Program-made: the position numbers and the translations under genes
Shown here: piece after piece, positions 9,090-48,200 of the stretch
How positions within the stretch are numbered: position 1 is the first letter of the stretch
Layout of the letters: every line of letters begins with the position of its first letter
Notes under the pieces: generated by a model
What the model was told of the DNA's origin: nothing
Database searches by the model: none
What the model saw: the letters and a program-made list of their open reading frames with translations, nothing else
Assembly (NCBI GenBank): GCA_947179485.1
Contig: OX359249.1
Span: 33,218,250 to 33,282,249, forward strand
Reading direction: 5' to 3'
Source: Allacma fusca
Taxonomy: Eukaryota > Arthropoda > Collembola > Symphypleona > Sminthuridae
Length of the DNA stretch: 64,000 nucleotides

Positions 9090-9266
9090 CTCATAACCGT
9101 CGACTTTTTCCATGGAATACTTATCTGGAATGGACCAAGAAACAAGCAGTGCATCCTCAGCAACTCTCCGACAGATACGGAATTCCAGCTCTTGAGTCTC
9201 CGCTACATCGGCTCCGTCCAGCGGACTCTCGCCTACTTCGCCTTGGCAAGCACTCTCCATTAAATT
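9090..9266 (-). CDS. Exon 18: probable N-terminal half of an FN3 domain
   Basis: The exon is 177 bases (59 codons), phase 0 to phase 0, with acceptor ttatgctcatggcag|AATTTA and donor TATGAG|gtttgt. An acidic lead (ESPLDGADVAETQ) is followed by ELEFRICRRVAEDALLVSWS, then IPDKYSMEKVDGYE. The buried Trp in LVSW and the Gly-Tyr-Glu before the next strand are hallmarks of FN3 strands B and C. The second half of the domain must lie on a further exon. A candidate at 7666 would read VLLFHPSGFTH after GYE. Function is unknown; FN3 domains generally mediate protein binding. Confidence 0.65.
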
Positions 9267-12200
9267 CTGCCATGAGCATAATTACATTGAAATTAAAAGC
9301 ATTTATAAAAGAGTATTTTTCCTCTGTAAAAATAATCCGATCCAATGCTCATCCTATATAGTAAATGCCTACGAAACTAAACTGCCTACCACGACACTTA
9401 CACATACCACCTAAATACATGCACGCAAATGCAAATGAGCTCACAAAAACACAATACAGGAAATGCAGTGTCTCACAGAACTGCTGGAATGAGTCCTCAG
9501 TCGAAGCAACCCCAATATCTACATAAGACGGCTTAATTATCAAAAGCAAGACAAGTGGCGATAATTACTACAAATGGCTCTTAAGATGACATACATAGAT
9601 ACATGTGTACAAGCTAATAAGTGACTGCAAGGAAAAGTACGAGTTTGTAAGGAAGGAACTACTACTACATACACAAGAAGCTATACAGGACTGTGTACAA
9701 AGTGAAATCTTGGCATGCAAGTTGTGTCATCATTAGCATGAATTAATTAGTTAATTACGATGACTGATTAATATGAAGCATTTAAAATCACCATTATTCG
9801 CTTTCTCTCAAAATTGAGGAACAAACAGAGGGAATCATAGGTAAAATCCAGATCCTTGAAGTCAAGAGGTGAGTGGGGAAGTTTCCCAATGTGAGGTATC
9901 TGCTGGAGCTGGTAAATGGTGGGATAACTCTCATCACGCTCGAGCTGACGGATCTCTGCTAAAATACTTTCTAGGAATATTCCATGTCTATCAGTTGCAC
10001 TTAAGTGAGCAATCCTTCGTGCAAGAGCCCGAATCAGTTCATTCTTCTGTCGACATCGGGAGTTGTACCAGGCACATTCCGTCAGATGACTGTCCCGTAT
10101 TTCTTTTTGACGAATATTAAACATCTCTTCCAGTTGACAAATTTGTACGCTCAAATGTGACATTGTTTCTCTCAGTGTGATGATTTGAGCATCCTTTAGG
10201 TTAAACCAAACCACAGAAACAAGCAAAACGGATTAACAAATGCCAGGCCAAACCATTCTGTATATATTAGTCTCTTTTGCAAATTCTAATAAATCAATCG
10301 TATAAGAGATATTATTTATACGCATCATTACTATGTTTGGGTATATCAGTTACAAGGAAATTCTAAGCTTGCCAATTTCCTTTTATAACATAAATTTCTG
10401 GCATACGTGCGGGTGCAAATATTTAAAGGGATTATTTGTGTGCATAAGTTACAGCAATTTTTGATTAGTATAAGTATTGTCTTTATTCCTTTCTAATTGG
10501 GAGGTAGACGGGGTCATAAATAATAAATTGATTAAAGGGTAGATACTTGAAATGTGAGCAAGGCATGAGTATAAACACCATTTGATTAAATATAATTATG
10601 CGTCAGTCACGTAAACATTGTCTCGTGGTGATTGTTGCTAGCATATGCCCTGTTTTGAAAAGTTTTAAATGAATTTTAAAACAAGTTCAAACAATATGTA
10701 CAGTTTCAGTTTTAGCAATAGCATGTCAGCCTAGGTCTCATCTGACTATAGATATTCACCATATACACTTTGAGAAATAAATAACCTACCCGTTCCTCAA
10801 GTTCACTCTCCATCTGCGTCACCACAGCCACTTCCGTGCATTCATTTGGGACTGATACCGTTGTCTCCATCTCCTTGGATATGGGTGTTACCTATACACA
10901 AGAAAGAAAAAATTCAATATTTAATTCAATTTGCAAATCATGTCGCCCCGTCACATCCGTACTAATCCTGAGGAGATACATAGGAAGGAAAATGTCACTA
11001 ACTGTAAACTTTGCTCTGTACCCAGCCCACTAGGTAAAGATGAAACTACATGACAAACAGTGAGGATGGAAACTTTGAGAAAAAGAGAAAATAGAAAATT
11101 ACCACTGAGCTTCGAGACAAGCATTCATCGCTCTCACAACGGGACAAAAGTTCTGGGATTCCTCGAGAGTCCTGATTAGAGAAACGTCAAGCAAAATAGT
11201 TGTAATGTTAGAGAAATAGTCACATTTTAGTAATTCCGTACTTTTCAGCAAAGTAATACCATTTCCATCCATCCAGCGCAAAAACTTGGGAGTAAACACA
11301 CACATATTTCCAAGTCGCAATGTCAAACACAGGTCAGAGCATGCCTCAGAAGTCAGGAACAAAGTAGAATTAGTGTAAAACCAATTAAAGAATGGCATAT
11401 GAATTATCCAAATTAATATTTTTAAGTTCCCCCACACGATGACCATCATTCCAAAAAGAAACGTCAAGCTCAAAAGCAGAGCAGTTAGTTTTTGACATAG
11501 AAAATGAAAACAATTAGCGGAAAGTTAAGAGTAGAGTGTTGTTTGCTTGTTTGTGTGACTGTGTGGCTTGAGAAAGTATGCCAACACGGAACAGAGATTT
11601 TACAGATAATTAACACTCAATACAGTTTAATTGTTCCGCATGCACAACATCCTCCAGGATTCAAATGAATGGAGACAATGGGATCATGCAATGATTCCAT
11701 TATATAAATAAATGTCCCGTTTAATTTACCCTATTCAGCATTATCACTCGTGTGAAAATTTCTATTAAGATTGTATAACTGTGTGGTATCAGAGTATCAA
11801 CTTAGTTCACATGGAATGACTGACTTGTTGTGTGTTTACTGATTTGCAATTGATGGAAGAGACATGGGTAAATTGTGGGGAATGACAATATACATACAAT
11901 GACCATGTACATCTAGGGAAGTCGTGAGGGATAAAGAATGTGCGGACATGTGAATGGAAGGAAATTAAAAGGAGGATTGAACATTCTTCTAACCCCATTA
12001 ATTCGTTCCATATCTGGTGAGCCTCCCAGCATCATGGTTAATGTGTTTAGTTGTTCCGAAACTTCGGTTAACTTTTTAGACGAACTCTTACAACTCTCTC
12101 GACTGCAACTCTGCAAGTAAGTATTATAGTTACATATAGTACAAGCGGTAGGCGGTGAGTGCTGGCAAGTAGACACATGTCACAGTGATCAATTGCATGA

Positions 12201-15200
12201 AGAATATGTATGGGTGTTGGTAGAAACACCTTCAGAGAATCGCCAACTTCTCTCTCCATCTCTCTCTCTCTCTCACTCCTTCCTCAATAGTACATACTTA
12301 TACATAGTACTTATGACCCTCTCCATACAGAATAAATAGGATAATAATAGATCCTCAAACATTGAATTAACTATACGAAAGACATTAATTCTGACGTTGG
12401 CTTTTCCTTCAGATGCCCATACATTAGAAATTACAAAACGAGCAGTGATTCCAGAACACAAAAGAGGAGAACAACATAAAGCACAGAGTTTTAAAGTTAG
12501 GTGTTAAACGTGTTGTTTTGGGAAATAAAAAATTATTATTATTCCGTTTCATGCACTTTTGAGTAATAGCAAGTCAGTAGAGTAGAAATCTCATGCTTGG
12601 TCGTCACTTTTAGACACACACCTTTGCTGTGTACTTAGGTATTAATTTCAACTTCTTGGAGATTACATGCTGTCATATTACACTTCTCACGTATGATTTC
12701 CTTACCTGGATTTGCGCCGCAATGTTTTTGATATCTCTGTCCACACCAAACAAACCACCTTCATTTTGAGCGAAAATATCTAAATCATTGGAAATTGCTT
12801 GGTGTCCAGGGTTAGCCCTTTGATAATCGTGGCTATGAGCCTCCAACTCCTTTTGCAGACTTCCCACCGTGGCCTCTTGACATCGTAACTCCTGAGATAG
12901 TGTAGCAACCAACTTTTCCGTGTTGGCTGATCTTTCGATGGCCTCTTGTAAAGTCCGCTGTAAAATAACATATTTAGTCAATTTTAAAAAAACATTGTAA
13001 ATCAATTTCCCTACTATCCTAGTTATTATTTACTTGGAAAAATGTTCCTTTCGACGGGTAGACACAAATATGTAATTACATGCTCCTACTAACAATAAAC
13101 AAAGGAATCATTTGCTTCTCACATGGTTAAGTTTATGTCTAAATTACCAATGCCGACGCCTATAAAAAAAAGTAGAAGGAAAAATTCACAAGTAGAAATT
13201 AAAACTGTATTTAAATATCTTGAAAAGGAATATGTGAAAATGAAAACATGAAAATATGGTGTGGGTGTATGCAACTGTAGTAATAATAATAATTATTGAA
13301 GTTTTTGTTCTATGCATGTATATATCAATATATTTTGCTATGTAGGCATTGTACAATCGAAATCAGAGACTTAATTGAATGCGGTTGAAGTCCCCATCAT
13401 ATGGAATTAAATTGAGGAAATCAGTTGGGGCCAGGGCAAAAGCCACTTTATTTGAAGAACATTTCACTACCGCTTGACGCTTGATTTACTTGAATCGGGG
13501 AGTCCCAATCCAGGACTTTCTTCCAACCCTCGCAAGATTACTTTTTTGCCCATCTATCTAATGCGCTGAAATTTAGGACGGCACGGGCAACCGACAGAAA
13601 TCTCAATTAAATTGAAACAATGTATATACGTACACAGGAGGAATAGGCCTGACGTATCTGAAAAGGCCTTTGGTGCCCTCTGAAAAAATAATAGTGTCTT
13701 GAATTTGAACTCCAGAGGAACAAAAACTCTGTTTGGCCATTCACCTAAAAAGCTAGGAAGACATACCAACATTGTAGGTTTACTCAAAGAGAAAAACAAA
13801 AATGCCAACTCTAACCCCGGCTGTTAATCCCAGTTGTAGAATATAAAATGTCAGCTCCCTGTGTTATTTTTTTCCCAATCCCTGATCTTCTAGATCAACT
13901 ATCAGGCATGTGGATTCGTTAATGCAAGGGATGAATAAAATATGGGCCAACGCTCCAGTGTATTCGTCAGAGTTGCTAACTTTTGAAGTCTGCCTTAGCA
14001 ATTCACGTCACACGTAATAACATATTGGGAGATAACCCCATGTTTCAGTCACATACCATTCAATTCTCAGTAGATTGACTTATTTGGGTATTTTTTTCTC
14101 GTCGATTCTCTGAACTGGGAAGTCATTGGAGGTAAAGTGCTCTTCTTACAGGAAAGTAAGGCAACGAATATTGTTCTTAATTTTTGAATATCTGCAAAAC
14201 AACCCTGTTATTTTGTCCTCCATTCGTATAATCCAATCAAATGATGGGAATCTTACTGCCTTGAGTTGACAGATGGGTTTTTGCTATGTAATGGTCCCTT
14301 CGCTATGGGAGAGGTTACTTGGGTGAAATGCTTTTCCAACTAGCCTGTGTATATACTTATACGAAGGGATGTATATGCCCACCTTTTGGTAAGAATTTTT
14401 ATTAACAACCATTACACAACAGCACTTCCAGCATTCTTATTAGTTCCTACACGTAGCGTGGAAATTTTCTCATAGCTGTTCGATTGAGTCTGTAAGAAGT
14501 TAATTTGACTACAGTAACTTGGCCATTTGTCTGATTGCGATAACAATAATTGCATTTGCCCAGCCAATGCAGACAAGAATTAAGAACTGTTTGTCGGGCC
14601 TGAATAATTACTGATCATTTGCATGCAAAAATTATAATAATAAGAGGCTACCTCAAACCTTACGTATGACTTTGAGTGAGAACAAAATAAAATCGATTAG
14701 ATATTCCTCCTTTTGCTCGATTGGACTGGAATCAGTAAGGAAGGAAAGAGCCGAGTGCAGGTAAATTTTCTGCAGAACTAGAGGCAAGCATTTTAAAGTG
14801 GCAATTCCACGGCTTCAGGACTAAGAAATAAATAATAAGGAGGAATACGAAACCTGTACTAGAGTTTAAATATTATCAATGGAGGCATAGCTATACATAA
14901 TTGGTTTACATTACTGACATAAAGAGAAACTTTTTTTTTCTTTGATTGTTGACCAGGAAGACAGAAAGGCATGTTGGAATGATCTCTACACACATATCTA
15001 CACATACACGCACACACACACACACACATACAAGTAATCGCATACATACATACATACTTCAGATTTCATACAGTGAACTTGACTGCGATGAGTTTAGCTT
15101 CCTACAACAGGTTACGTTGGACTTAGTCCCATGACAGGAATAACGGAAATTTATTCTCTACTCAGAAAACAAGGTGCGACTCACATTTTCTGAGAGCAGG

Positions 15201-18200
15201 TTTACAAGACACTTTGTGATAATTTACCATTTGCACAACTTGTAGAGTACATCAATTATAATTGTTTCTGGGCGCGAGAGTAAGGAGAAAACTTAAGGTA
15301 ATAACCAACCAGCTCTGTCGACCCTTCAGGCGGATCGCAGGGAATCAATACATGTAACTAACCATGACTATTGATATTACATAAACTTATTGGTAATAAA
15401 TATTCAAGAAACCAAGTTCGTTGCTTGCCATCAGTGACACAGTGGCCCACCCTCACTCATCACAAGATCCGTATCAATACCTAGTGACAAGGCGGCTCTT
15501 TAGCCGAATAATTTGCAGCAATGATGACGGAAAAATACTCCGCGTGCACCATCTGAACTTTGTACAACTTTTCAATGATTAATGAGATTCATTTGTTTTT
15601 CTAGTTTTTCTTATCCAACTTCCCAAACTGCATAATAACAACAGGTTCAAATGCAAGGAACAAAATTCAAGTTGGTCCATGGCCGTAGCAAAGGTTTTTG
15701 AGGCGGCATGAGCACGTAATTGCTATTGGACTCTGCTAGGTCAATAATAGTCCCAAGCTAACGGAGTGGTCAATTTTTATCACAAGAAAATCTGAAATTT
15801 CTCATCGATTTCCACCTAATCCTTGTCAAGTGCATACTTTTTCTCTCTATCGTACTCCACACCAAGAGAATTTTCCCTTCGTTGGGACTATTTAAAGTTT
15901 TTGTGCCACGAGAGAAAACAAAAGTCGAGTAATAAGGCTGAGGGAAGTCTGACTTCAATCGCAATGATACATTTTCGCGGCAAAACTAAAAAAGCGAGAG
16001 AGAGATTACACGAATAAGTATATCAATCGGTCATTACCACAGAAATATATTTTATCACGAGTTGAATCGCAATAAATTCCATGCAGTTGACATAGGATGT
16101 GGAATTCCTTTAGTAAGAATAGCAAACATTGATCGTTGCAGATAGCAGTAATGTACCAGCATGAAGGGAAATGATTGACACGGTCAGATATGTACAGATT
16201 TCTCTTGAAAAAAAAGATCAACGAAACATATAAATGACTAAGCGAGCTGGAGCTTACAGATAGAGACTGATTGGGGTAGAAAGATGAATATCAGAAATTC
16301 TTTTATTATATTGGAGTAAATGAACAAGACCAATTATTAACAGCACTAGATAGCATTATCTCTGATTACGAATCCAACCAAGTCTACCAAAGTATCTTGA
16401 GATGGTATGAATGGAATTGTGGAAAGGCTAGTACATGTGGATGCAGGTATGCTGGATGTACGAGAAGAAATGCACAAAGCACAAGCAAGCTGCTTGATAT
16501 GATTGCATTTTTCCCCTTGCTAATGGTCACGCACTTTGCTTTGCATTTTATCCTTGGACATCTATGTGTTGGGAAGTTAGACATAAAAAAAATATCGCAA
16601 ATAAAATTCCCATTGTTTACATAATTTGCAACCTGTCGTATTTGCAAAATAGCAAGTTAAGTCTCGTGTGAGGATGGTGGTCGCGGTTGTGTGGTACAGT
16701 GACGATAGAGGCTAGAAGAGTAGCTTGAATGACATTTTTTTGTCCCCTGGCTCTAACTACTTTAACGTAGCTACTTAACTCATGGCTACTTAAACACAAT
16801 TAGAATTTCTGCTCACCTCAAGGTAGAGAACTTCCTCCCGGAGCATCCCGTTGGTGCATTCAACGTCAGCCAGTTGCTTGTGGACCTCATTAAGCTGAGC
16901 TCGTAATTTTGATATCTGACAAGTAAATACGGAATAAATATTATCATTGTCATCCCACATGCAAGATTTTAATTTCTGTCTCCCTCCGCCCGTTATTATC
17001 CTCAAGGTATTAGGGGCCTCAATGTATCTCTACATACATGTGTTTCAGGCATGAGAAATTATTTGTTTTTTTTTGTAAAGTACATCCTCAGGAGATATCG
17101 TGTAATGGAAAGGGAAGCTTAAATAAAAAATTTCTTGCCCTTTCTAAATGTGTATTCCCATTTGGTGTCGCAAAAAAGCGGTGACATTATTTAGAATGGT
17201 ATTTTGCATACTTATTGTAAGATTCATACTTTTGAGGCTAGATTTTGTCATCAAATTATTTGGGGATATATGTAGGTACATAAATATGCACGACGGAAAT
17301 TTCATTCAGAAATGGTACCATGTAGATACTCTGTGCTAAAGGGATTTATTTTTATTAGGAAAGCGAGTTATGGCAGGAGGTTAAGAAATATTGTGGGAAT
17401 GAACTATTTTTTATTTTATCAGGTTTAAGTCTGCTGGTGGTAGAGACATTGCAAAAAGAAGACTCCTCGATCCATTATGCGTGAATGGCAGGGTAAAGAC
17501 ACAGTAGTCAGATGAAAGGTATGCATGCATGGGAGTCTACAAAGAGATTACAACGGCTTAATAGGAATTTAGAGATTGAAAAAGAAGATAAAAGTGAGAC
17601 TACATTAGATATGATAAAAGATGGGTGAAGGGGTAAAACCTGAGATTGTGACGACGTGGCGTTGTTTTCAAGAAGATTGTCTTTTTCTTCCAACTCATCC
17701 ATGAGGCCTTTGACTTTGGTTGCCAAAGTCTGAATTTCATTTTTGTACTTGGCCTCCCGAGAAATTTTTGAATCCAGATCATCTTGGAGCTGGCAACATT
17801 TATTACGAAGAAATTGAATCTCTTCACGTAGTTGAGAGATTCTCTCCAGGCATTTACGTTCCCGCTTCTCAACCTGATCCACCGTTTCCTTGACGTAAAT
17901 CTCACTCTGTTCCAGCTCCTCAATTCGATTTCGTAGTGAGGTTTCAGATCCATGAGCATCTTCAAGTCTCTTACGTAGGGTTGCATTAGCTGATAACTCC
18001 GTCGTAAGTTTCTCATTTTCTTCCTCGAGCTCTTTCACTCGACTCATGACCGACTCTTGGTCAGACAGAATTATTTGCAACCTGTTGTTTTCCTCGGCCA
18101 AGTAAACAATTTGTGAGTTGTCATTTTCGAGATGCTCAGTGGGTGTGCTGGTGATAATGTTTGGAGTGGTGAATGCTTTCGCTCCCATTTCTTCCTTCAA

Positions 18201-21200
18201 TCGATCGATTTCATCTCGTAACTCTTTTTCTCTTTGTTCAAACTGAGTTACTTGGTGTTGGAAAGCTTGCTCCAGTCGCATTACCAGGTCATTTTTATTA
18301 CATTGATTCCCCGTGTCTTCCCCTACAACAGCAATGCCTGGAATCGTGTTCCCTGTTACCCCTACCACGTCTGGCTTCCGGCCACCTTTCCATTCTCCTG
18401 GGAATAAAGATCGGATTCTGTCAGCAACCAAACCTCCACCTTTGATTTTTTCCCCTTCACCTTTTCTTGAGGAAGCAGTACTACTACTGCTGGGTGACTT
18501 GATGCTGGAATCACTCCCGTGGCTTTGTTTCTTCACATTAATTCCTTCGGCTAGTGCATCCTTCTCATTACTTATACAACTTTGCGCCCTGTCCGCAACT
18601 TGCTCCAGCTCTAAAATTAAACTATCCCACTTCTGCTGCAAATTCTTTCTTTCCTCTAAAAACTTTTGGCTTTCTCGTAGAGCACTTTCTTGCTCCGCTA
18701 ATTTCGTTTCGTAATGATTAATTAGTTTGCCTCGCTCTGAATCAAAAATATCCTGGTATTTGTCGATATCACATTCGAGTAGCTCAATCCTTTCCTCCAG
18801 GGCTTTTTCGATCCGAAGCCATTCTTTCCTTTGAACGGCAATAATTTCATTGATGAAGCATTGCCAGGACTCCTCACAAGTTTGGGAGTCTGCATTGGAT
18901 TGAGAGGGCCGAATATATTCCTCACGAATAATATCACATGACTTGTCACATTGAATCAAGACATCTTTCCTGTCACTCTCCCCCCTCAGCTTCTTCAAGC
19001 TGGGCTCCAAACTTGCCGTTTCTCCGCTTTTAAGCTTATGTTTACGAGAGAGAAGGGTAACTGTGGAGGATGGACTCTGCTGAATGAAGGGCAATGAGGC
19101 ATCTCTGAGATGATTCGACGGTGGGTAGTAATAGTAGTAATTCGTGATTGCTTCAGTTTGAAATAGTTTGAGTAATGACCACAGGTACCAAAGAACAAGA
19201 ACGGGGACACTATTAGCAATGAATTGTACGGAACACTTCATCTCTATACAGGACTCTTCCAATTCAAAGTTATGCTGTTCATAATTTTGCACTAAGGCAT
19301 CAACCCGAATTATTTGTGACGACAGGTCCTCCTCACGCTCTTGAAGCTGCAATATTTTCATCCGAAGTTGTTCAATAAACAATTTCTCACTTGACAATTG
19401 TCGTTGCAGTAGAGCTTTCTTTTGGCGTAAGTGGGAAATCTTCTCCTCCAATCTGAAAATCACAAGTCAGCACTTTCCTTACTACAACCAAGCATTCTCA
19501 AACATAAATCACAGGCACATAAAATACACCTGTGTATTCAAACTAGCTACAGTTTAGAAACTCTTTCCCTCAACCTGGTATCCGGTGACTATGACTACAG
19601 CTTGTGACCATGACTATCGTTGGCAGTCACATAATTCATCCAAGGCAGCTCATAATGAAATGCGATATGAGTATAAATGATTCTCAAGTCAGTATTAGTC
19701 CAGGTCTCCCTTGCAACGGTCAGCTTTTTGCTACCAGCCATGACAAACTGATACAGACATTAGTACTTCAAACATCCAAAAGTACTTCCAAAACCTATTT
19801 CTGTTACTGCATTAAAGCATATGAAAGGCTGAATTTTACCGCAGCTGACCGGACTGCACAGACAGAAGTCAATCTGCAACCATATGAAACCAATATTGTT
19901 CCTGGATGTCAGAAGTTTCCCTTCATCGGTTCCACAATAGGTGGAATTATTGTAAGCAGTAAGTGAAAGATACCAAAGACATCATCCCTCTAGCCAGACA
20001 CATCATTTCAGATTTTAGTCCTATCTTGATAGGTAAGAGCGTACATCATCAGCGGTTCTTGTTACGAATTTAATTACCATACTGTGCAATGGAGCAGAGC
20101 ACTCATATTGTATTGACATAACTGTTGGCATACCTTGATGACAGGATTTAGTACGGTTTCCACTTGCGAAATACATTCTGCTTGAATGAGCATTATAGTT
20201 CGCAAGGGATTAACACAGTGATTTACATCGAAATAGCATTGGGAATGACCTAGAAATAGTAACTAAACCCTGCTTTAAATGAGATGACTGTAATGGTCAG
20301 CTGGTAGGATCATTCCATAACATCGTAACGTTACACTGAACGCAGAAACGTTATTCAACTCCAAGGCTTATACAGTACAGTTTAAGCCTTCATATGTATG
20401 TAAAACTAGGAATTTCACAACACTTCCTAAAAACGTATATTTCTCCGTATAAGAAGGCAAAATTATTGTTATTATTCTTCAATAAATACATTTTAGCAAA
20501 AACACCTGGTTCTCGAAGGCTGATTGCAAAGACAATAAGTTATTCTCAATAACTGTATCACTTTATAGTGTGATCTCTAAATGGGCCATTAAGATAAAAA
20601 AAAAGCACTACTGGGGAAGGTAGTTGAGGAAAGCTTGCCTTTCGTTGAGTCTCACTTTGTATCGTATCAACACACTTCCCATAATAATGCTTGTGAGGTT
20701 TTTTTTCAAATTGGTGGAGCGAGACAATGACCAAATAATGAATGCAACTAAATGACTGATTATGAATAGTGGGACAGGCATCGCCTGACAAAAGGGTGTT
20801 AGTCAGATGCTCCTACCAATGTGCTCAACTCTTTTCTGGTGGCCACCATGAAATCGACATGCATGGTTTTTGCTTCATTTGAGTATTTATAAAACACTAT
20901 GTGGGTACCTTTGTACACACAATTATGTATTTATGTACATACGTGCCTCCACTCTGTATCTCTTTTAACTCTGGCTTCATTTATGGTCTGCGAAATTTAC
21001 ACAAAATTAAGATTTTATTCAGCTCCTAAATGAATGAATGTAACGAACAATACGAGTTATAAAAGCATTCAGAAAGCTACCTACTTGTTAAATAAGTATG
21101 AGAATATTAGCTTAGGGCTGTTGATTAAAAGGCAGTCTCTGTGAGCTCTCTACGGATTAAGAACATAACGAATGTCCACATTAAGATACATGCCAAGATA

Positions 21201-24200
21201 AGCACACACTGTGCTCCTTCCAAACAGACACTGCAGACTACCGTAGTGACACTGACTGAGATACTTTACCTTACTACTACTTTCCATAAGATCTCTACGG
21301 CAGTTTAAAGAAGGATTTGCAGTTGTAACTGCCTTGCTAATAATTATCCAGGTCTAATTTTCTTTACTCAGTATTGCGAGACCAGTGTAAATATTACACG
21401 TGCAGTAAAAGACTCAAATGAGTAAGATAACTTCCGTGGTTAGTGAAGATGTTTATTTGGACAGGTAAACAAAGATATCGTCTACGCTGATGCATCCCCC
21501 CTCCAACCGTACTCATACATGCATGTACGACTCCAGTTGTTATCACGCTATCCAAATCATAAAAATACAGATACATATACACCCTCTGAACGAAATTGAG
21601 AGGGTGTATTCCCACTTGTGTGTGATTACAACCAGTGGAGTGAGGCTAGAGGTATGAGAGACCACCATATATTTGGCTATTTCTGCGTTGAAATGAGTCA
21701 CATTTGAAGGGAAGATTAATTGTAGAAATTACCGGCGGGGAATTAAACCACAAAAAGTGAGAAAGTAAAACGAAAGGCATGCAGGTGGAACCAGCCACAC
21801 ATGCAAGGTGGAACTTGAAAGTATACTCCGTTGGTTAATCTTCTTTGATAAAATTGTTCCCAATTGGACGCTAGTATTATCAATATTAATCCTTCTCTGG
21901 GGCATCGATACTCACAGAGCTGAGCCGTACTCCGTGGTTATTGCCAAAACGCACGTGAGATCGTCGAGGGTATAAATTGTGGGCAGATGATTATTGAGCA
22001 ATCATAATTGCAGTGACTGTACCGTCCGCGAAAAAAATATGAGTACATATCTGTTTACAACAGAGACATGATCTTTAATGCAACCACACAATGCAGTATT
22101 ATATACCACACTCTCCCAGCCTGCATTTAGATCCCCCTCTTCATACTGTAAATATGATGTTGCACATCACAATGATAGTTAACTGAAGGGATTTTGACAA
22201 TGTCTGTCGACGTCGATGTGAAAACCTGTCATCGCACCGCATTCATTTCAAAGAAGGCAAGGCATAAACATGGATGAGACAGGCACCGGAGCCAAGTATG
22301 GTAAATAAAGCACAATTCTCGTAGAATGTCTCCGTCCTCAAGAGGGGGACAATGAAGCTCACATGAGATATCCCATTCTTTTGAACTACATCCGACTGCC
22401 GGCATCCACCCGCCAACAAGTGCCCTCATAGACATCTGATGCTTACAGTAAATTCAATTATTCACCGTACTTTCTGAAAGACCCTCCACTAAAGGGAATA
22501 ATTGCACTCTGTGGCAGCCTAGATTCATGAGAGGCCATCAAGGACTAATAATCGCAAAAATTCAGGAAAATAAATGAGCATAAGCCGATCATCTCGACAT
22601 AAATTCCAGATGTTGGAGTCAATAAATGAGGGCATTAATAAAAAAAATGCTACTTTATCCTATTTCGATCCTATTCCTGTGATTTGTATGCTAGAAATTT
22701 GAGTCCATATTTTGGAGTGGTTGGAGGTAGATTGAGCAGGTATGAATTTACTGGTAAGAATTACTACCTTTGGCACTGATGTCGACTGTCATTCTCAGCT
22801 TCTTCCATTTCCGAGCGTTCCTCCTCAAGCCGTTGATTTTCTTGGATTAACAAGCTCACTTTATCCTCTAAGCTATTAACATAGTTGATATCAGCGAACT
22901 GGGTAAGCCTCCGCTCAAATTCCTGTATCCTCTGACGGCACGATTTCAATTCACTAGTTAAGTCCTGACCCCTTTTGACTTTACTTCTTGCGGTACTGGT
23001 GGGGCCGCTTCCTCCGGAGCCTCTAGAGGATGCGGAGTCAAGGCCTCTAACCGGCTCCATATTTCCTCCGGTTGTACTCTCTCGATTGGTGGACTCCCCA
23101 TTACCAGTGTTACCTGAACCTTCCGCGAACCGGAGAACAAGGTTTTCAATTTGGGTTGTCAGGTCCGTCAGCTCTCGGCTAATATCTTCCTTATGAATCG
23201 GTACATTACTAAAGCCAGCAGCCGTGAGTGCGGTTGTGTAGGCATCATCATTCACCGACTGGCTATCGAATATCCCACTCTCTTGCAATGAAAGACTATC
23301 GGAACAATCACTGCAGGAACTTCGAGACTCAGCCACGCTAGCATGACTGTTGCTACTACTGTCATAATCCCCTCGTATCTGTAAAAAAAAAATAGAACGA
23401 TCTTTGAAGGAAATTCCATGAACTCTATGCAACTACTACTACTCTACGCACCACAGTCCGTCATCTTTAACCTTAACGCTCGTTTCATTACTAGACGTCT
23501 CCATATGGGATATTTACATTATCCCTTGCATAATATATTTTGTGGCTACATTCCAGCAAAACAATTTTATGATTTTGCATGTCTAAATAACCTTTGTTCT
23601 TGGGTTTCATCTCTTCCTCTCATTCTCGTTAGCTTGTTCACAATTTTAGTTGCAATATTGTTTCAACAGCCCAGTCCCAACTTCTTTTCCCATTGACATG
23701 AAAACTTGCTGAAAATATCAAACTTTGGAGACTTTTGCTGGAAATTAAAAGCTGAAAAGTTTTCTTTCCTTAAGAAACTTTTCCCTCCCGCACGTCACAT
23801 AAATTGTCATGCTGTAAGTAAGCACTGTGATGACTACCCTGGACTATACCTTTCCCTCTGCATAAATTTTCCTACTCGTTTAACTTTCACTTAATAATCT
23901 TTTATGTATGCTTTACTCAACTGTAACCAAACTATTGGAAACATTAATACTATCGACAAACCCTTACAAATGCCGAGCATACACATGTTTAGGAAAATTA
24001 TGCAATATTAACAAAGGACCTTAGAAACACCAACAGAATGCAACTCACATATTGACATTCACAAGTCGTTAATTTTAATGTGAAGTATGCAGGGAGGGCT
24101 CCATTTAATACCTGAGTATATCTATCCCTGGCAGTCTCTAAGGACTGAACGACTTTACTAAACTCGTTGCCAGAAAGTGGCTTACGAGCTGTAGTATTGA

Positions 24201-27200
24201 CAGCAATTGCCTACCGATAGCTACTCAAACCTTCCTTGTAGGGTTCGGCGTACTTGTACATACATACATACATACATATGTAATAAGAACATGAAATATA
24301 TTAGGGCTGATAGGGATGGGGCGACGTGCTCTGTCTCCATTCCCATTAATTCCATGTGATTATACTACACCGCAAGTTATTATCCATTACTTACTATGAT
24401 TAAAATATGCTCCCATGTGCTGGCTAACTTCATCTCCAAAAGTATAAAATACCAAGAACATCATGAATTAAAGATACGCAATGCTAGCTCTTGCTTAAGG
24501 AGGTTGAGGGCTATGCAATTTAGACAGCGGCGTCACTCAAAAACTGATGTTCTGCAAATGCTGTTGTTCCGATCACCTCACTACTTCAATTCCGCTGCTC
24601 TGTCAGAAATGCACTACATACTCCGAAAGTTTGGGTCCGATTACTTACTATAAAAGAACCATGTAATTACAAATACAAGTGAGGCTATATCTGAGGTACC
24701 TACTTTACTTATTACAGCCTCATTGACTATTAGTGTTTTTTTTACTCCCGTACACACAGAGGAGGTTGATTGAATTTTTTTTTTGGAGCTAACCCACCCT
24801 TCATTGAATAGGTTCAATTCTCTTACTCTCAATCACTTTCGTGATCGACCAAATCGTTTGTTTTATCCGAATTACTTTAACTCGGCTGTTCCCTAAAACA
24901 TTGAGCGTAGATGAAATAAATTGGTACCTTTTGTATTTTCGATTAGTAAAAAAGGAGCAGCTTTCTTATTCTGTAATGAGAAAGTGTGTGGCCTTTTAGC
25001 TCCATTGAATACTTTTAAAAGGCCAATGAAGTCAGTCCTCAGTGATATAAACCACCATGAACTAGCTTCCTCTTACTCCCAAGTAAATATTGGTAGTTCA
25101 TCTACTTACAACATTTCCATATCTACTCTATTTTATTGGCAATTAATTACTTGACATTGTTTTCCCGTTTACAGCCAGCACATAATTTACTCTCAGTATT
25201 TATTATGCTCCAACTTGATTTACGAGCTGAAGGTCCTTTACACATGTCTGTATGTGGACAGTTTAGTTTACATGGTACACATGCTGTTAGACACAGCTTA
25301 TTAAATCTACTCTGGCACTTTATACTGTCAACGTTCAAGTAAGCCTTGTGTGTAAGCCCGAGCCTCATGCACGTCCATACATATTTGGTGAGTTATGCCT
25401 TGGTTTGAAAGACTGTAATAATTACAAGTGCACTGCTTTCTTCCCACAGTCCATTTACTTAAAGACTCATTGCAACCAATATGCCCGAATTTCTATTTTA
25501 CAACTGGACTTTTACATCGACATATTGTGTATGTATGTGTGTGGTTGAAGGGGAAAAAAAGTAACTACTTAAACCTCACCTAAGAAAGAGTCACTTGCGT
25601 AAAAGCATTCCAAGTATTATTGTACTTTTGTAGTAGTGGCCAGTAGGGCATTTAATTACATGCTCCCAACATTCAACAACATCCAAAAAATTGAAGACTG
25701 AATGTAGGTAAGTGCTTCTCTGTAGAGAGCCTATTCACTCACTTTAGCTGTTTTACGATAAACTCGAAACAACTTTTCATCCTCTTGCAAAAGAATTGTA
25801 GTTTGTTCGTAACCATTGATAATAAAAGAGACAAATAGTCGTAAGAATGATTTTCTCATGGAAGCGGTGTCTCAGTTTTTAATATTAATGATGTGGTAAA
25901 AGTGCATTTGTGTGTACCTCCCTTTCAAAATGTATACTTACCACATTAATATAAAGCCATGATGGGAATTTTTTATAGAAGTAAGAAATAAATCTAGCGT
26001 TAAATTTCCAAAAAAATACATGGGAACGAGGACAACTCAAATAACTACACATGGTGCTTCACATTATCATACACAACTTGCGATTTATAAGTATATTTTC
26101 AGGATGACGCCCTGAGTGAGTGAGAGATGCACATATTAGGGACGGATAATTGGAACGTCGTTAAGTTAATTAAAGAGGCACATTGTCACAATTAAAACAA
26201 TCACGAACCGTAACTTCCGTAGGTACTTCCGCTCCATGGTACAGAGCAACTTCAGAACCTGTTGCAATAAGGCTCCTCACACTACGGCTGCTCTTCCCAC
26301 ATTTTCGAGTCTCGGTCCCGCTCTGTATAAAAAAAAATTGAGCCAGGTATAGTCAATCATATATGCGGAGGGTGATCATTGCCCATGCAAATTATCCTCG
26401 CATAAAAATTTCGCATGCGGACTCTACTGCTCAGATGGAGACGGAAGCAAAAAAAAATATTTGATTCGAGTCAAAGGCTACGACTGTCAAGGAAATTGAC
26501 TAGCTATGAAATTAATCTCGTAATTTATCGTCCGCACACGGTTAATTAGTGAACGTGCTATGAAACTAGGAAAGGTTGACGATCTACCGTATTTCTTTGA
26601 GTAATTTTATGGATTGGATTCCGCCTTCATTTTATTTGCATTATGGACATTGCATGCAAGAGAGATTGTGGAGTGTTCATATTTTGCGAGTTTTTGTGTG
26701 ATACTTTAATTACATGAGAGTATTGGGGAAACTTTCTCAGAATAATTTTAAAATTTACATAAATTTATTTTACAATTGCGAGAAAAGTCTTTTTGTAATC
26801 TCCTTCAAGTGGTCTTTAGTACAGTCCCACGAGAATCTCCTTAACTTTTAATTTTATTTCCTTTTATACATACTAGACCCTTCAGATTTTGGTGAGTGGT
26901 TGACTCTCTTTCCCTTTTATGAATCAACGTGAAGTTCCTGGACATACAGTCTCTATAGGCAATTAGATGGAAGGAATTTCAATTATTAGATTCTAAATTC
27001 TTGTTAAGAGTTGCAAAAGACGTAAATGTAGGGAACTCATTGTTCCATCTTGAAGGCCTAATACATGCTATAAAGTTTCATATGCTCCTCCGACGAATTG
27101 TTACCTTAATTTCGTTTTGGTAAATTAAATGGGCAATAATTCTAAGCCACAATAATAAGGCGGCTGCCTGCAGTGGGATATTTGGTAAGAGTTATTATCC

Positions 27201-30200
27201 TAATTGTACCTCACGCTATTTGCAGCAAATATTGCACCAACATTTTTTATGTGGTGTTTATTATTTGACGTGAAACGTCAAAAAATTATGAGATGCTGCA
27301 TGAATGCCGTAAGAAAAATATTTATGCATACAGAGCAACTTATAAAGTACCTGTGATGAATGATTTCCTCCCAGTTCTTCAATCTCCAACAGTCGGAATT
27401 CAAGGAGTTCATTTTGATCTTTACATTCTCTCAGTTCATCACGAAGTTGACGGATTGTTAACTCAAGGGATAAAATCTTATTACGTTGATCTACTGAAGC
27501 CTCGCATGGAATAATTGGCTGGCCATCGGTAACATTTCTAATTTCTAAATTTGAGGCATGGTTCAAGGAAAAATTTTCGTCGGACGCCTGGCTCGAACAA
27601 GATGTAACCAAAGGATTTCCGTTTTCAGACAGGTCTTCAGTCTCACTACATTCTTCTTCACTTTCTGCCTCTGGAAGTGTCTCCAAGGCGGATCCTGCAT
27701 ACTGTGAAAAGGAGAATAAAGGGAAAAAAAATTTGTATAAGTACATCCACTCATGAACAAACACCAGCTATATGTAAATACATCTATAACCTGAGTACAA
27801 GTCTAATTCCAACACTTACTTATTATATCCCCTCTTAAAAGAAATGTAGGGATTGCATGCGAGTCTGGGATAAAAGTAAGCTCATTCGTGAGTATGATCA
27901 AATATTTGAGTTAAAAAACAGCAGGCTTCTATTTTGGGAAAACTTCATGGCTGTACATACAGTGAGTGTTATACGTGTAAGTTTTTCTTGTTAATTTAAT
28001 TTTTACCCTCTGCGTGATTACTTTTTCTGCAAGAATTTCAACGAAAAGTAACTTCCCTCCTTTCCACTTCTTACATTGGTTTGCATTGGTTACCGTTAGT
28101 CATTCTAGCGGCAATTATCTTTAAATATACATGAACGCCTCTGTATATGTACAAGCATAGAAACTTCTGGATGGATATCTGGGCTTAAATTTGTAATAAA
28201 TGGTTAAGTTTTTCTCAAATGCTTTCAAAGTTGCTTCCTAGACTTGCAAGTTTACTAAGCCTGACGACAGGAACGACTCGTTGGACGGACTGTGTGTGAA
28301 TAAACTTGTGGAGTACTTAGAGCATGTACGATAAACTTGAGATTTTTATGCTCATGCAAAGAGAGTGCATTTAAAAAAGAGAGAAAACACAAGTGCAAGC
28401 GCACTTCTCATTACGTGCAGAGGAGCAGAAGATGAGTTTCTCGTGACATTTTACTGTAATTATTAGCCCCTTTTATGATAATCAACTACAATGTTTTGCC
28501 AAGGTACATCGTCGTCAAACAATGTTTAGAACAATTCATTTCGTATCCACAGGTTTATTCCTTGTGCATCTTTACGACCACCATCATTAGTGTATTAGTA
28601 CAGCTGACATAGGTAGTTTCAAATCGCTGCAGATCATTCACACGTGCTCAACCAAAACGAATCTGTCTAGGATCCAATGCCAGTATTTTCTGCTGTTTTA
28701 CATTATCAACAAAAACTGTAGGAGTTATTACTATGGGGAGGGAGAGTCAGAGATAGAGAAACCAAATAAATGCTACAGAAGTAAGTATGTCTATGACAGC
28801 TCTACATCCGTAGTTGGGTATAGAGTATGCACGGCCGGAGAGGGTATGAAAAAGAACCAAAACGATATCTTAAAACTAGATCTAGGTTAATATTTTGCTT
28901 TCCTTTCAGCAGCAGTATTGTTAAGAAATGATTTGTGACTCGCCTAATTAATCGGCTTTAAGCAACAAATTGAATTATTCCTTCCCATTAAGGCCGTTTG
29001 TTTCGGGGTGGGAAAACTGCTCAGGTAGATGCACGGACAATGCGAGTACATCCGAGTAATTTCTACAAAGGCAATGGTAATCCTCAACTAATAAATAGAG
29101 AGGGAATGGAAATTACAAGGAAAAAGAAAAGCCTCATTTCCTCTGCAACAAAAAGATTTTCTTTCAAACTGGTATTAACAATGGGAATAAGTAGTCAATG
29201 CAACGCACACACGTACAAGTTCAATAGTCAATCGTGAAACATCAAATGGTATTTTGTAAGAAAAAAGAAACAATCGAAGGAATGGAAATTCCTGAGACTC
29301 TAATACTGAAATGTAATAAATGTGTATATGTAAATAAATGGATCATCCAAACACGTACAATTCATTAAAAACTGCATACGTGAAATAATTCCGGCAATAA
29401 ACTTCTCCTAAATCGTGGTTCTTTATCAGAAGGATATTCTTGTTTTTTTTTTGCATGGAACAAGTCTCCAAAGAGAAAATAAGAGAGAAATATCTCCTCA
29501 AGATGTGCAGACAATTTGTCTCCAGTGCTTATAGTGTAGCTCTTTGCTCTCCCAACGTACAGATTTCCAAATGATTTAAAATTTTTCTAAAGCGTTAACA
29601 TTCTACGAGGAAAAACTTGTTCAGATCATCACAGTAATATTATGTAATTTCATGCAGGGCAATTTTCTTGGTTGGATTTTAGCTTATTATTTTCGTGTTG
29701 CTTTGGTTAAACCGGTGGTGGCTGTACGATAAGGGTAAGGAGGCTGTAAGACTTCTCCCTCAGACATCTTTTGCATATAGATATGTACACAAGTAAATGC
29801 GTAATCACAGAACGTACTCATTACACCCATGCACATACGCACACTGACTGGGGTACATCTGTGAGGAGCATACCATAGTGTGATGGTGTCTACCCTGTCT
29901 ACACACAAGGGACGCACTGCATATAGGGAGAATAAGCTGCGTACTTAAACTGGAAAGAGGACGTAACAAAAGGATGAGGCAAAAGAAAATCAACATAAAA
30001 ATATGGTTCCAGGGAGTCTTACATGATGGTGATAAAAAAATTGCTGCGAGTCCACAGGCTGCGTTTCTCCCATTTCTTTCATCCTTAGCGTGGACTCATG
30101 TCTTCTCTTCCCAGACGAGGGATTGTAAGGATGCTGGGATATCCGACTCCGGCGATAACTCTGCAAAGAACAAGCAAAATACTGTACAAAGAATCATCTT

Positions 30201-45200: not shown

Positions 45201-48200
45201 AGCTCCCTCGGGCTTCCTTATGCCATCACTCTCCTTCTTGTTTCTTCCTGTATTTAAAATATTGGTGAGAGAATCTATATACACGTATATTAGCCACCGG
45301 CGGAGGAAGAATTGTCTTTTGTTAATGGCTCCCCGCATACATGGTTGTGTATCCTGAATAGTCTCTGAACTAAGAAAAAAAAGTACCAGTAGCCCGGACA
45401 AACAGTAAATATGCACATAAGAGACCATAGAACTTCGGATTGCCTGTCAGGAAGCAACAAACATTGCTAGAGATAAAGTACGTCAAAAATTTCCAAGGGA
45501 TGCCGGAACAAAATCTTATAATACCGTCGGTGTCTTCGTCTTGATGTAAGTAATATACCTACTGTGATAGAAAAGCCACACCACAACACGACAAAAGTAC
45601 AGATTCCAATGTAGCCAGCAAGGGAATGAAGATGCAATTTTACTTTAGGAATCTAAAAGCAACGCATCATAATTACCAGCGATGCATATAAAGAAGTAAA
45701 TTACGTCGACGGCCATATAGGCATCAGCTCAACTTGACTTGACTAGGAGTCCAGTTACGCTCCGCAATTGCCGACTCACTCAGCACATCTGAGCGTGGGG
45801 TTCATAAGAAAGAAGACGTGCTTTTCATTTCCGACGAAGCAAGCGATGAAATTTCTTCGTCGGGGATGTTACACTTGGAATGAATTGTTATTGTTGCTTT
45901 GTTGTAATAAAAACTCGATCTTCGAGATAGAGGCAAAAATCAGCTTAAGAGAGACTCCTAGTCCTTACTTAAAGTGCATCGGGAAAGGTGAATATAACTT
46001 GTCGTACTAGAAGTAGTGGTTTGTAGTGCTGATTATTGAGGGAAGATCTAGTAAAGAGATTTTGTATGAGACTCTATGAACAGGTATGACTGTAAGTATC
46101 TATCAGGCAGTCGATGTCTCGTTGATTTCTACACACTATTATGTATGCTTTAATGCACGAAATAATGTGTCCGTAAGTTGCCGCTATGAAACAGCACTCA
46201 CATCACTTTGCTCAGGGTTGGGTGCTGTAAATGGCACTAATAAAAGACAGTGCTACAAATGGTCATGTGTACGTGCCGCCTAATATGCGGCATGGTGAAT
46301 GAGAAATTGTTACTAAGAAATCGTTGATATTTACCGTAAACCAAGTTGAAAACTTGAAATGTTTACGAATTGTAGAGCCGGATGTGAAACGTTGACGCGT
46401 AGGCTGGCTAGTTCCTATGTTCCTCTGGCTTTTATTACTCTGATCACCAGTAGTATGAGAGTGTATGGCAGTAAAATATTTTTGCGATTCAGTTCATGCT
46501 AAGATAATTGCATTTTTATAAAGCAAGAGTAAGTGAGTAAGCGAAAGAAAGCGGGGCTTGGAATGGCCATAAGACGAATGTCCATTTGAGTAAAGCGAAC
46601 GTGAGGAGTGGTGATATGATATATTATTATCATAATGATTGGGCAAACCTTGTTGCGAGAAGCGGGTCTGGACTGATGATGTTGTTTACCACCGAACGGA
46701 GTAATTGCTGCGATGGACGAAGAACAAGTTGATATTAGAGAGACACCCAGGGACTTATTGGAAACAGATTGAACAGTCTTCCGAAGAGATGTTATATGCC
46801 GCTCTTTTGTCTTCAGCTCCAGGAGCTATAATATTTACGATACAGCACTACTCAGCTCGTACATGTGTAAGTATAGGCACACAAGATTACTTCATTTCAA
46901 TACCAAAATATTCGATAAGAATCACGCCAGAGTCCGTCCTTCCACCTCTAACCTAATTGCAGCTCCGGATTGATTGATATGGAATGATGATATTACAGAA
47001 ACAATTTGATTGCATACGAAAGAAAAATATCTTACGAGATGAACGAGCTGCTTTTGAAAGTCTTGCTTCAATTTTTCAAGATGGATTTGATACGCGTCTT
47101 GGATTATTTTCCTGTCAGCCGCACGCTTTTTGTCTGCTTCTCTTTTTACCTGCAGGAGGATGAGTACGGTGTCATTCTAATCATCTTCAAAGTTCCTATC
47201 TGATGCTTAATTGTTAACATGGTAAAGTTACCAGCATCTCGGGCTATAGTCAATTCAATCTTTTTAAACCAATCAGTTAATCATTCCTACGAGGATACAT
47301 CCGTCCAGGTAGACACTATCCACAATTTATGGTTATTACTTTTGCCAAAGTCGTTCTATAGAAGTTAAGCACCTACTTGAAAAGACGTTTAGGTATAGTA
47401 GTAGAGTATATTTACAAGTGAAAGAAAAAGCCGCATGCTCCAACCGGAGTGTTAATCAAACGACTAATGTTTTAAGGCTAATAAATTCCACTACGTAATT
47501 TAAGGCAGATGTTAGTGTGCAAAAATTAAAAATATTTGAGTATCATGTAGAGCTTGAGAGTGAACGTACTCGTTGACTATGGGTAAATAAGAGGTGCAAT
47601 TGACTGTCTTTCTTGTGGATCAACTGTATTAGCTCAGATCGGAAGTTCCTTTCTAATTGAAGCTTTTGATTCTCTAAACTTTGGCTTTGTTCCATGTGCA
47701 ATCTGGAAGGAGGTAAGAAATGGTTTTACTTATTGAAGCAGGTCTGTGAAAACAGTCAGTGGTCATACGAACCTCAGACCTGTTTTTTTTTTGTATTTTT
47801 ACATGCCTTATATATCTAAACATATCTACAGTCATGTATCCGTCCGTGCAAGCATTGCAGACACAGACCCACACGTAAAACTCTTTCCAGAGCTCCCAAG
47901 GAATGCAGGGCAATGCAATGTAATTGTTAGAGCTTGTCAAAATTCCTTGTGTATAAAGTAAATGACTAAACACTTAAATTATGGGAGCTAAGTGTGTCGA
48001 AATCGGAATGTTTCTTGAGTTTACCTGGTTTTCAAATCATTAATTGCGAACTCGAATTTCTTGGTTTCATCTTCACGAAGGGCTCGCAGCTCCAATGGTC
48101 TCTCTCTCTTGAGTTTCTTCACTAATTGCCTCTCACTCTCCAGCTGTTCCCGGAGATTAGCCAACTCCTTGTCTGTCTTATGCTTGGCTAGTTTTAGCAA

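What the first reader, a model, noticed from the sequence alone, without database searches (positions are those of the whole stretch)
9090..27701. JAKMIP-type protein that does not stop at the JAKMIP C-terminus
Vertebrate JAKMIPs end about 30 residues after the KDQNELLEFR signature. Here the signature exon (27351-27701) has a good donor, and 11 further exons follow in matching phase, adding about 1,200 residues: a Ser-rich region, a second long coiled coil and an FN3-like segment. If they form one transcript, this is a JAKMIP core fused to a coiled-coil plus FN3 tail, an architecture I do not know from described members. Alternatively two genes sit in tandem with compatible phases.
Basis: partly seen in the sequence, partly recalled or inferred. 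Interest (0 to 1): 0.75.

Follow-up and report, generated by a model that had tools for sequence, protein, structure and literature searches.

The report
Arthropod JAKMIP-like gene with long tail
In an arthropod genome, a gene related to a family of neuronal coiled-coil proteins that has been called vertebrate-specific seems to run on into a long extra coiled-coil-like tail, much as one might expect from a known fruit-fly gene pair, but no RNA evidence was available to prove that both parts form one protein.

Summary
Observation confirmed. The signature exon (27701-27351) is a JAKMIP exon (Pfam PF16034, E 1.1e-11). Eleven further minus-strand exons follow in compatible phase without a stop, adding 1,285 residues. 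Codon statistics back nine of them well, one fairly, one weakly. The genome looks arthropod and gave one JAKMIP_CC3 match.

Interpretation partly right. Vertebrate JAKMIPs need not end soon after the signature: JAKMIP3 has 844 or 915 residues (PMC3765260). The FN3 claim rests on half a domain below threshold (E 0.085); no completing exon was found before the next gene.

The likely counterpart is the Drosophila Pif1B/Pif1A locus: Pif1B is called JAKMIP-coding (PMC6135522); Pif1A overlaps it and gained upstream exons in later gene models (PMC5544243, PMC4528329). Matching published Pif1A primers to the tail is only suggestive (post hoc p 0.011).

One fused transcript is favoured over two overlapping units, but only RNA data can decide. 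New variant of a known kind; moderate interest.

The parts
48025..48263 (-). first JAKMIP-like coding exon, starts ATG GGC GAA (MGEDEIHSLRAANNRLEH...)
47570..47702 (-). JAKMIP-like exon (LHMEQSQSLENQKLQLERNF...)
   Evidence: phase fits the previous exon; weak alignment to recalled JAKMIP3; codon score reached by 0.14% of null
47036..47149 (-). JAKMIP-like exon (VKREADKKRAADRKIIQDAYQ...)
   Evidence: weak alignment to recalled JAKMIP3; codon score reached by 0.41% of null
46690..46825 (-). possible JAKMIP-like exon (LLELKTKERHITSLRKTV...), doubtful
   Evidence: position and open frame only; codon score not supportive, reached by 9.7% of null
27351..27701 (-). signature exon, JAKMIP_CC3 positions 101-191 of 200, KDQNELLEFR
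   Evidence: Pfam PF16034 E 1.1e-11; only match found in the genome, E 1.7e-8
26209..26322 (-). tail exon 1, 38 aa, doubtful (poor donor)
   Evidence: open in phase 0; codon score reached by 0.77% of null
24112..24210 (-). tail exon 2, 33 aa, weak
   Evidence: open in phase 0; codon score reached by 4.1% of null
22768..23378 (-). tail exon 3, Ser-rich then coiled-coil-like
   Evidence: no in-frame ATG upstream of the acceptor
17640..19452 (-). tail exon 4, long coiled-coil-like block; stretch near 19241-19092 may be an in-frame intron
   Evidence: 652-aa open frame; one match in the genome
16817..16915 (-). tail exon 5
12706..12957 (-). tail exon 6
11994..12110 (-). tail exon 7
11103..11171 (-). 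tail exon 8
10790..10891 (-). tail exon 9
9792..10193 (-). tail exon 10, long helix then low-confidence region
   Evidence: AlphaFold single-sequence model of 10193-9768, mean pLDDT 54.9
9090..9266 (-). tail exon 11, FN3-like first half by eye
   Evidence: codon score reached by 0 of 612 null stretches; Pfam fn3 only E 0.085, below cut-off
27261..27350 (-). read-through of the signature exon: 29 codons, TAA overlapping AATAAA; candidate end of a short isoform, not coding-like
   Evidence: codon score -13.9

Best explanation
This is one arthropod gene whose N-terminal part is a diverged, apparently shortened JAKMIP (first coiled coil plus the CC3 signature) and whose C-terminal part is a roughly 1,250-residue coiled-coil-like tail, joined in frame by splicing in at least one isoform. 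It is most likely the counterpart of the Drosophila Pif1B (JAKMIP-type) and Pif1A locus. Working model, inferred: the JAKMIP part attaches to microtubules and partners, and the long tail acts as a rod-like scaffold or dimerisation arm; a short JAKMIP-only form and tail-only forms may be made from the same locus by alternative ends and promoters. Shown: homology of the signature exon, exon chain, phases, coding potential, arthropod host, one match each for JAKMIP_CC3 and a tail probe in the genome. Inferred: a single transcript, orthology with Pif1A, function.
For: JAKMIP_CC3 E 1.1e-11, sole match found in the genome. Eleven tail exons on one strand in compatible phases with no stop and codon support. 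The first three tail exons have no in-frame ATG before their acceptors (10, 0 and 18 codons back to a stop), and the first Met is residue 140 of the 1,247-residue tail, so none of them is a first coding exon as it stands. The introns at the junction are 1,028, 1,998 and 733 nt, within the range of the other tail introns (211-3,859 nt). The next same-strand gene (DHDPS family) starts only about 12.9 kb past the last exon. In Drosophila, Pif1B is described as JAKMIP-coding (PMC6135522), one SNP lies in introns of both Pif1A and Pif1B (PMC5544243), and Pif1A-RG/RH are named among gene models that gained an upstream 5' exon by merging (PMC4528329). Three peptides read from published Pif1A primers fit the tail in order, post hoc p 0.011.
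Against: No RNA evidence. The junction rests on the two weakest exons (26322-26209, 24210-24112) or on skipping them; since nearly all introns are phase 0, compatible phase is cheap. In fly, Pif1A and Pif1B have separate names, Pif1A transcripts have their own start codons (primers), and knock-down of Pif1A but not of Pif1B made males sterile (PMC8950383 table), which speaks for separate products. The passage in PMC4528329 does not say that the upstream exons gained by Pif1A are Pif1B's. Primer matching is weak: 3 of 20 primers reach p below 0.05 one by one (about 1 expected), and 2 of these 3 point to other places in the tail; the two-primer test gave p 0.083 and the reversed protein an equal score of 37; in the triple test the reversed protein scored 47 against 54. 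JAKMIP central exons were not found between 46.7 and 27.7 kb.
Confidence: 0.55

Rival explanations
1. Two overlapping transcription units, as the fly names Pif1B and Pif1A suggest: a short JAKMIP-type protein ending just after the signature exon and a tail protein with its own promoter and first exons, with little or no fused product.
For: Separate gene symbols and different knock-down results in fly. Published fly Pif1A-RI and RG cloning primers start at different ATGs. Read-through of the signature exon meets TAA overlapping AATAAA at 27263-27261; AATAAA within 40 nt is found after 3.7% of random positions.
Against: No start codon in reach of the first three tail exons; the read-through has a negative codon score (-13.9) and the 3' UTR would be almost nil; Pif1A models did gain an upstream 5' exon.
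Confidence: 0.36
2. The exon chain is right up to 9792 and the gene ends there (stop at 9770-9768) or nearby; exon 9266-9090 is an alternative or unrelated exon, and there is no FN3 domain. This can hold together with either reading above.
For: Weak donor at 9792 and weak acceptor at 9266; fn3 below threshold; no completing exon found from 9050 to about -3790.
Against: Exon 9266-9090 has strong codon support (0 of 612), and the only structure-database hits, both with E above 1, are twitchin and RPTP-delta, which I know as FN3 proteins.
Confidence: 0.4
3. Chance open frames or pseudogene pieces lined up by eye.
For: Only that two of the 11 exons are weak.
Against: 652-aa open frame and codon scores.
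Confidence: 0.02

Closest known systems
Vertebrate JAKMIP1/2/3 (Marlin-1, NECC1, NECC2)
   Same: CC3 signature with KDQNELLEFR; N-terminal exons align weakly in the right order to sequences recalled from memory
   Different: Central region not found here; vertebrate C-terminal region not found; here a far longer tail follows
Drosophila Pif1B (PFTAIRE-interacting factor 1B)
   Same: Invertebrate gene called JAKMIP-coding (PMC6135522), overlapping a second gene, Pif1A
Drosophila Pif1A / CCDC157 family
   Same: Coiled-coil protein at the same fly locus; a few primer-derived peptides fit the tail in order
   Different: Reported as a separate gene with own starts; no mention of fibronectin in the main text of PMC6370830; its similarity to human CCDC157 is 20% identity by that paper

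Membership tests
JAKMIP | JAKMIP_CC3 domain (PF16034) above its cut-off | tested here: met
   45.2 bits versus 30.2, positions 101-191 of 200; first half of the domain not matched
JAKMIP | N-terminal coiled coil of JAKMIP type | tested here: inconclusive
   exons at 48263-48025, 47702-47570 and 47149-47036 align to JAKMIP3 recalled from memory, best E 1e-4; best iE 0.005 in a two-sequence profile
JAKMIP | Central coiled-coil region between N-terminus and CC3 | tested here: inconclusive
   no exon found in 46.7-27.7 kb with recalled sequences; it may be lost or too diverged
JAKMIP | Vertebrate-type C-terminus | tested here: inconclusive
   one 45-residue match to recalled JAKMIP3, 8.7 bits, 1 of 400 shuffles as good, but recalled JAKMIP2 gives 0.4 bits with 48 of 400 as good
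Fibronectin type III | complete fn3 domain above cut-off | tested here: not met
   13.5 bits versus 25, positions 9-35 of 84; 0 families for the bare exon; no completing exon
Drosophila Pif1A | sequence similarity to Pif1A | tested here: inconclusive
   only primer-derived peptides: 3 of 20 primers below p 0.05 singly, ordered triple p 0.011 post hoc
Drosophila Pif1B/Pif1A locus | JAKMIP-type and Pif1A-type exons at one overlapping locus | tested here: inconclusive
   JAKMIP-type and tail exons lie together on one strand here, the fly arrangement comes from papers, but that the tail is Pif1A-type is not shown
fused JAKMIP-tail protein | single spliced transcript across 27351 and 23378 | not testable with these tools
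   no RNA data

The most novel reading that the evidence does not exclude
A fused JAKMIP-Pif1A protein of about 1,500-1,600 residues is the normal product in this arthropod, so that the fly's two named genes are a split or alternatively expressed version of one ancestral scaffold, perhaps with an FN3-like module at its C-terminal end.
Probability: 0.33. Interest if true: 0.5.

Novelty: new variant of a known kind. Interest (0 to 1): 0.38.

Why it matters
Two papers state that JAKMIPs are vertebrate-specific or have only vertebrate members (PMC3765260, PMC4906994); this locus shows an arthropod member by a curated profile. If the tail is fused, it links a microtubule- and receptor-binding family studied in neurons to Pif1A, a fly gene needed for actin cone movement in sperm formation, and makes their shared origin testable.

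Tried and rejected
Tail as vertebrate JAKMIP C-terminus: one segment (residues 1045-1088) matched recalled JAKMIP3 at 8.7 bits, but recalled JAKMIP2 gave 0.4 bits; not accepted. Completing exon for the FN3 half: scanned from 9089 down to 60 kb beyond the window (28 best hits shown) and, phase 0 only, from 9050 to -3790; nothing convincing. Relatives by back-translated patterns in viral contigs and genome contigs: none. Solved structures by sequence: nothing up to E 1 for the signature exon, one hit each with E above 1 for the FN3-like exon. AlphaFold of 10193-9768 without an alignment and Foldseek against PDB: low confidence, 0 of 13 matches at E 0.001 or better. Rfam (gathering) and tRNAs: none in the window. 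Papers: 'janus kinase and microtubule' with fibronectin type III and coiled-coil, 0 papers; one search listed 20 of 398 papers, none of the 20 with the word JAKMIP. Insect odorant receptor family 7tm_6: no match in the genome, but the control rang nowhere, so it proves nothing. That the PIF-1 locus makes dicistronic transcripts is my recollection of Rascle et al. 2003, which is not held. All 15 papers opened were seen as passages only; PMC9782006, PMC2685396, PMC7128011, PMC10645079, PMC4815013, PMC7309417 and PMC5844309 added nothing to the argument.
Full report
The window is 64 kb of contig C5 of a 392.7-Mb genome. The genome gave 150 Chitin_bind_4 matches (150 of 236 candidates were scored), which by general knowledge marks an arthropod. 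JAKMIP_CC3 matches once in that genome, in this window (6 of 6 candidates scored), and a 66-residue tail probe also matches once, here (2 of 2 candidates scored). So I see one locus and no paralogue.

Check of the observation. The signature exon 27701-27351 matches JAKMIP_CC3 at E 1.1e-11. The 11 tail exons were rebuilt with exact boundaries. In a scan of AG-to-GT open stretches, with a codon table trained on the signature exon and the tail itself and so partly circular, the 60 best minus-strand hits included 10 of these 11 exons, some with shifted ends, plus N-terminal exons; 26322-26209 was not among them. With codon tables that do not contain the tested exon, 9 of 11 tail exons were reached by at most 0.54% of non-exon open stretches, 26322-26209 by 0.77% and 24210-24112 by 4.1%. 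The null stretches overlap one another (step of 7 bases), so these are rough rates; for the signature exon and three long tail exons the null held only 100 open stretches of 300 nt.

N-terminal side. An exon at 46825-46690 fits by position but has no codon support. No central JAKMIP exon was found between 46.7 and 27.7 kb.

What happens at the junction. The three exons after the signature exon have no in-frame ATG before their acceptor, and the tail's first Met is residue 140. A separate tail gene would therefore need an unseen first exon or an internal start. On the other side, reading through the signature exon's donor gives 29 codons and a TAA that overlaps an AATAAA; the codon score of this piece is -13.9, so it does not look coding, but a short isoform is possible.

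Downstream limit. I fetched 60 kb beyond the window's low end. A same-strand DHDPS-family gene begins near -3,800 in window coordinates; two of the three pieces I scanned match PF00701 at E 1.6e-5 and 7.2e-6, the presumed first exon does not. Between 9,050 and that gene no exon completes an FN3 domain. The FN3 reading stays a lead: fn3 E 0.085 with five read-through residues included in the match, no family for the bare exon, and E 1.1 to twitchin and 1.6 to RPTP-delta, which I know as FN3 proteins.

Literature, all seen as passages only. PMC3765260 calls the JAKMIPs vertebrate-specific and gives JAKMIP3 as 844 or 915 residues. PMC4906994 says the JAKMIP family has only vertebrate members among those it annotated. 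[quoted passage not shown] PMC8950383 lists Pif1A and Pif1B in one small interval; its knock-down table has Pif1A sterile and Pif1B fertile. PMC5544243 places one SNP in introns of both. PMC4528329 names Pif1A-RG and RH as models that gained an upstream 5' exon by merging; it does not say whose exon that was. PMC6370830 reports Pif1A as a CCDC157 homologue needed for sperm individualisation.

Test of the Pif1A link. Without the fly sequence I translated 20 published primers and compared them with the signature exon plus tail. Three of 20 reach p below 0.05 alone (all-qf 0.038, RJ-qR 0.035, RH-qF 0.042; about one is expected by chance), and only all-qf (QCQLLER to QCQRLEE) lies where a common Pif1A exon would make sense to me; the other two point to other places. 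The pair of 'all' primers gives p 0.083, and the reversed protein scores equally. An ordered triple with the start of the common exon (IEEN), chosen after seeing the data, gives p 0.011 with two kinds of shuffle; the reversed protein scores 47 against 54. This is suggestive and no more.

Verdict. A real arthropod JAKMIP-type gene with a long coiled-coil-like tail in frame, probably the counterpart of a known fly locus. One fused transcript is my favoured reading (0.55), two overlapping units the main rival (0.36). I moved these odds a little towards the rival when I added the fly knock-down result to the evidence.

Noticed in passing
19241-19092: Stop-free stretch inside the long exon with non-coding codon statistics; it holds the most hydrophobic 19-mer of the tail; may be an in-frame intron or a lineage insert.
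   Followed up: partly
27350-27261: Signature-exon read-through of 29 codons with TAA overlapping AATAAA; candidate short-isoform end.
   Followed up: partly
L002, about -3,800 to -9,130 in window coordinates: Same-strand DHDPS-family gene (by eye a HOGA1-like aldolase) downstream of this gene.
   Followed up: partly
46690-27702: About 19 kb without a recognised exon where the central JAKMIP region would be expected.
   Followed up: partly
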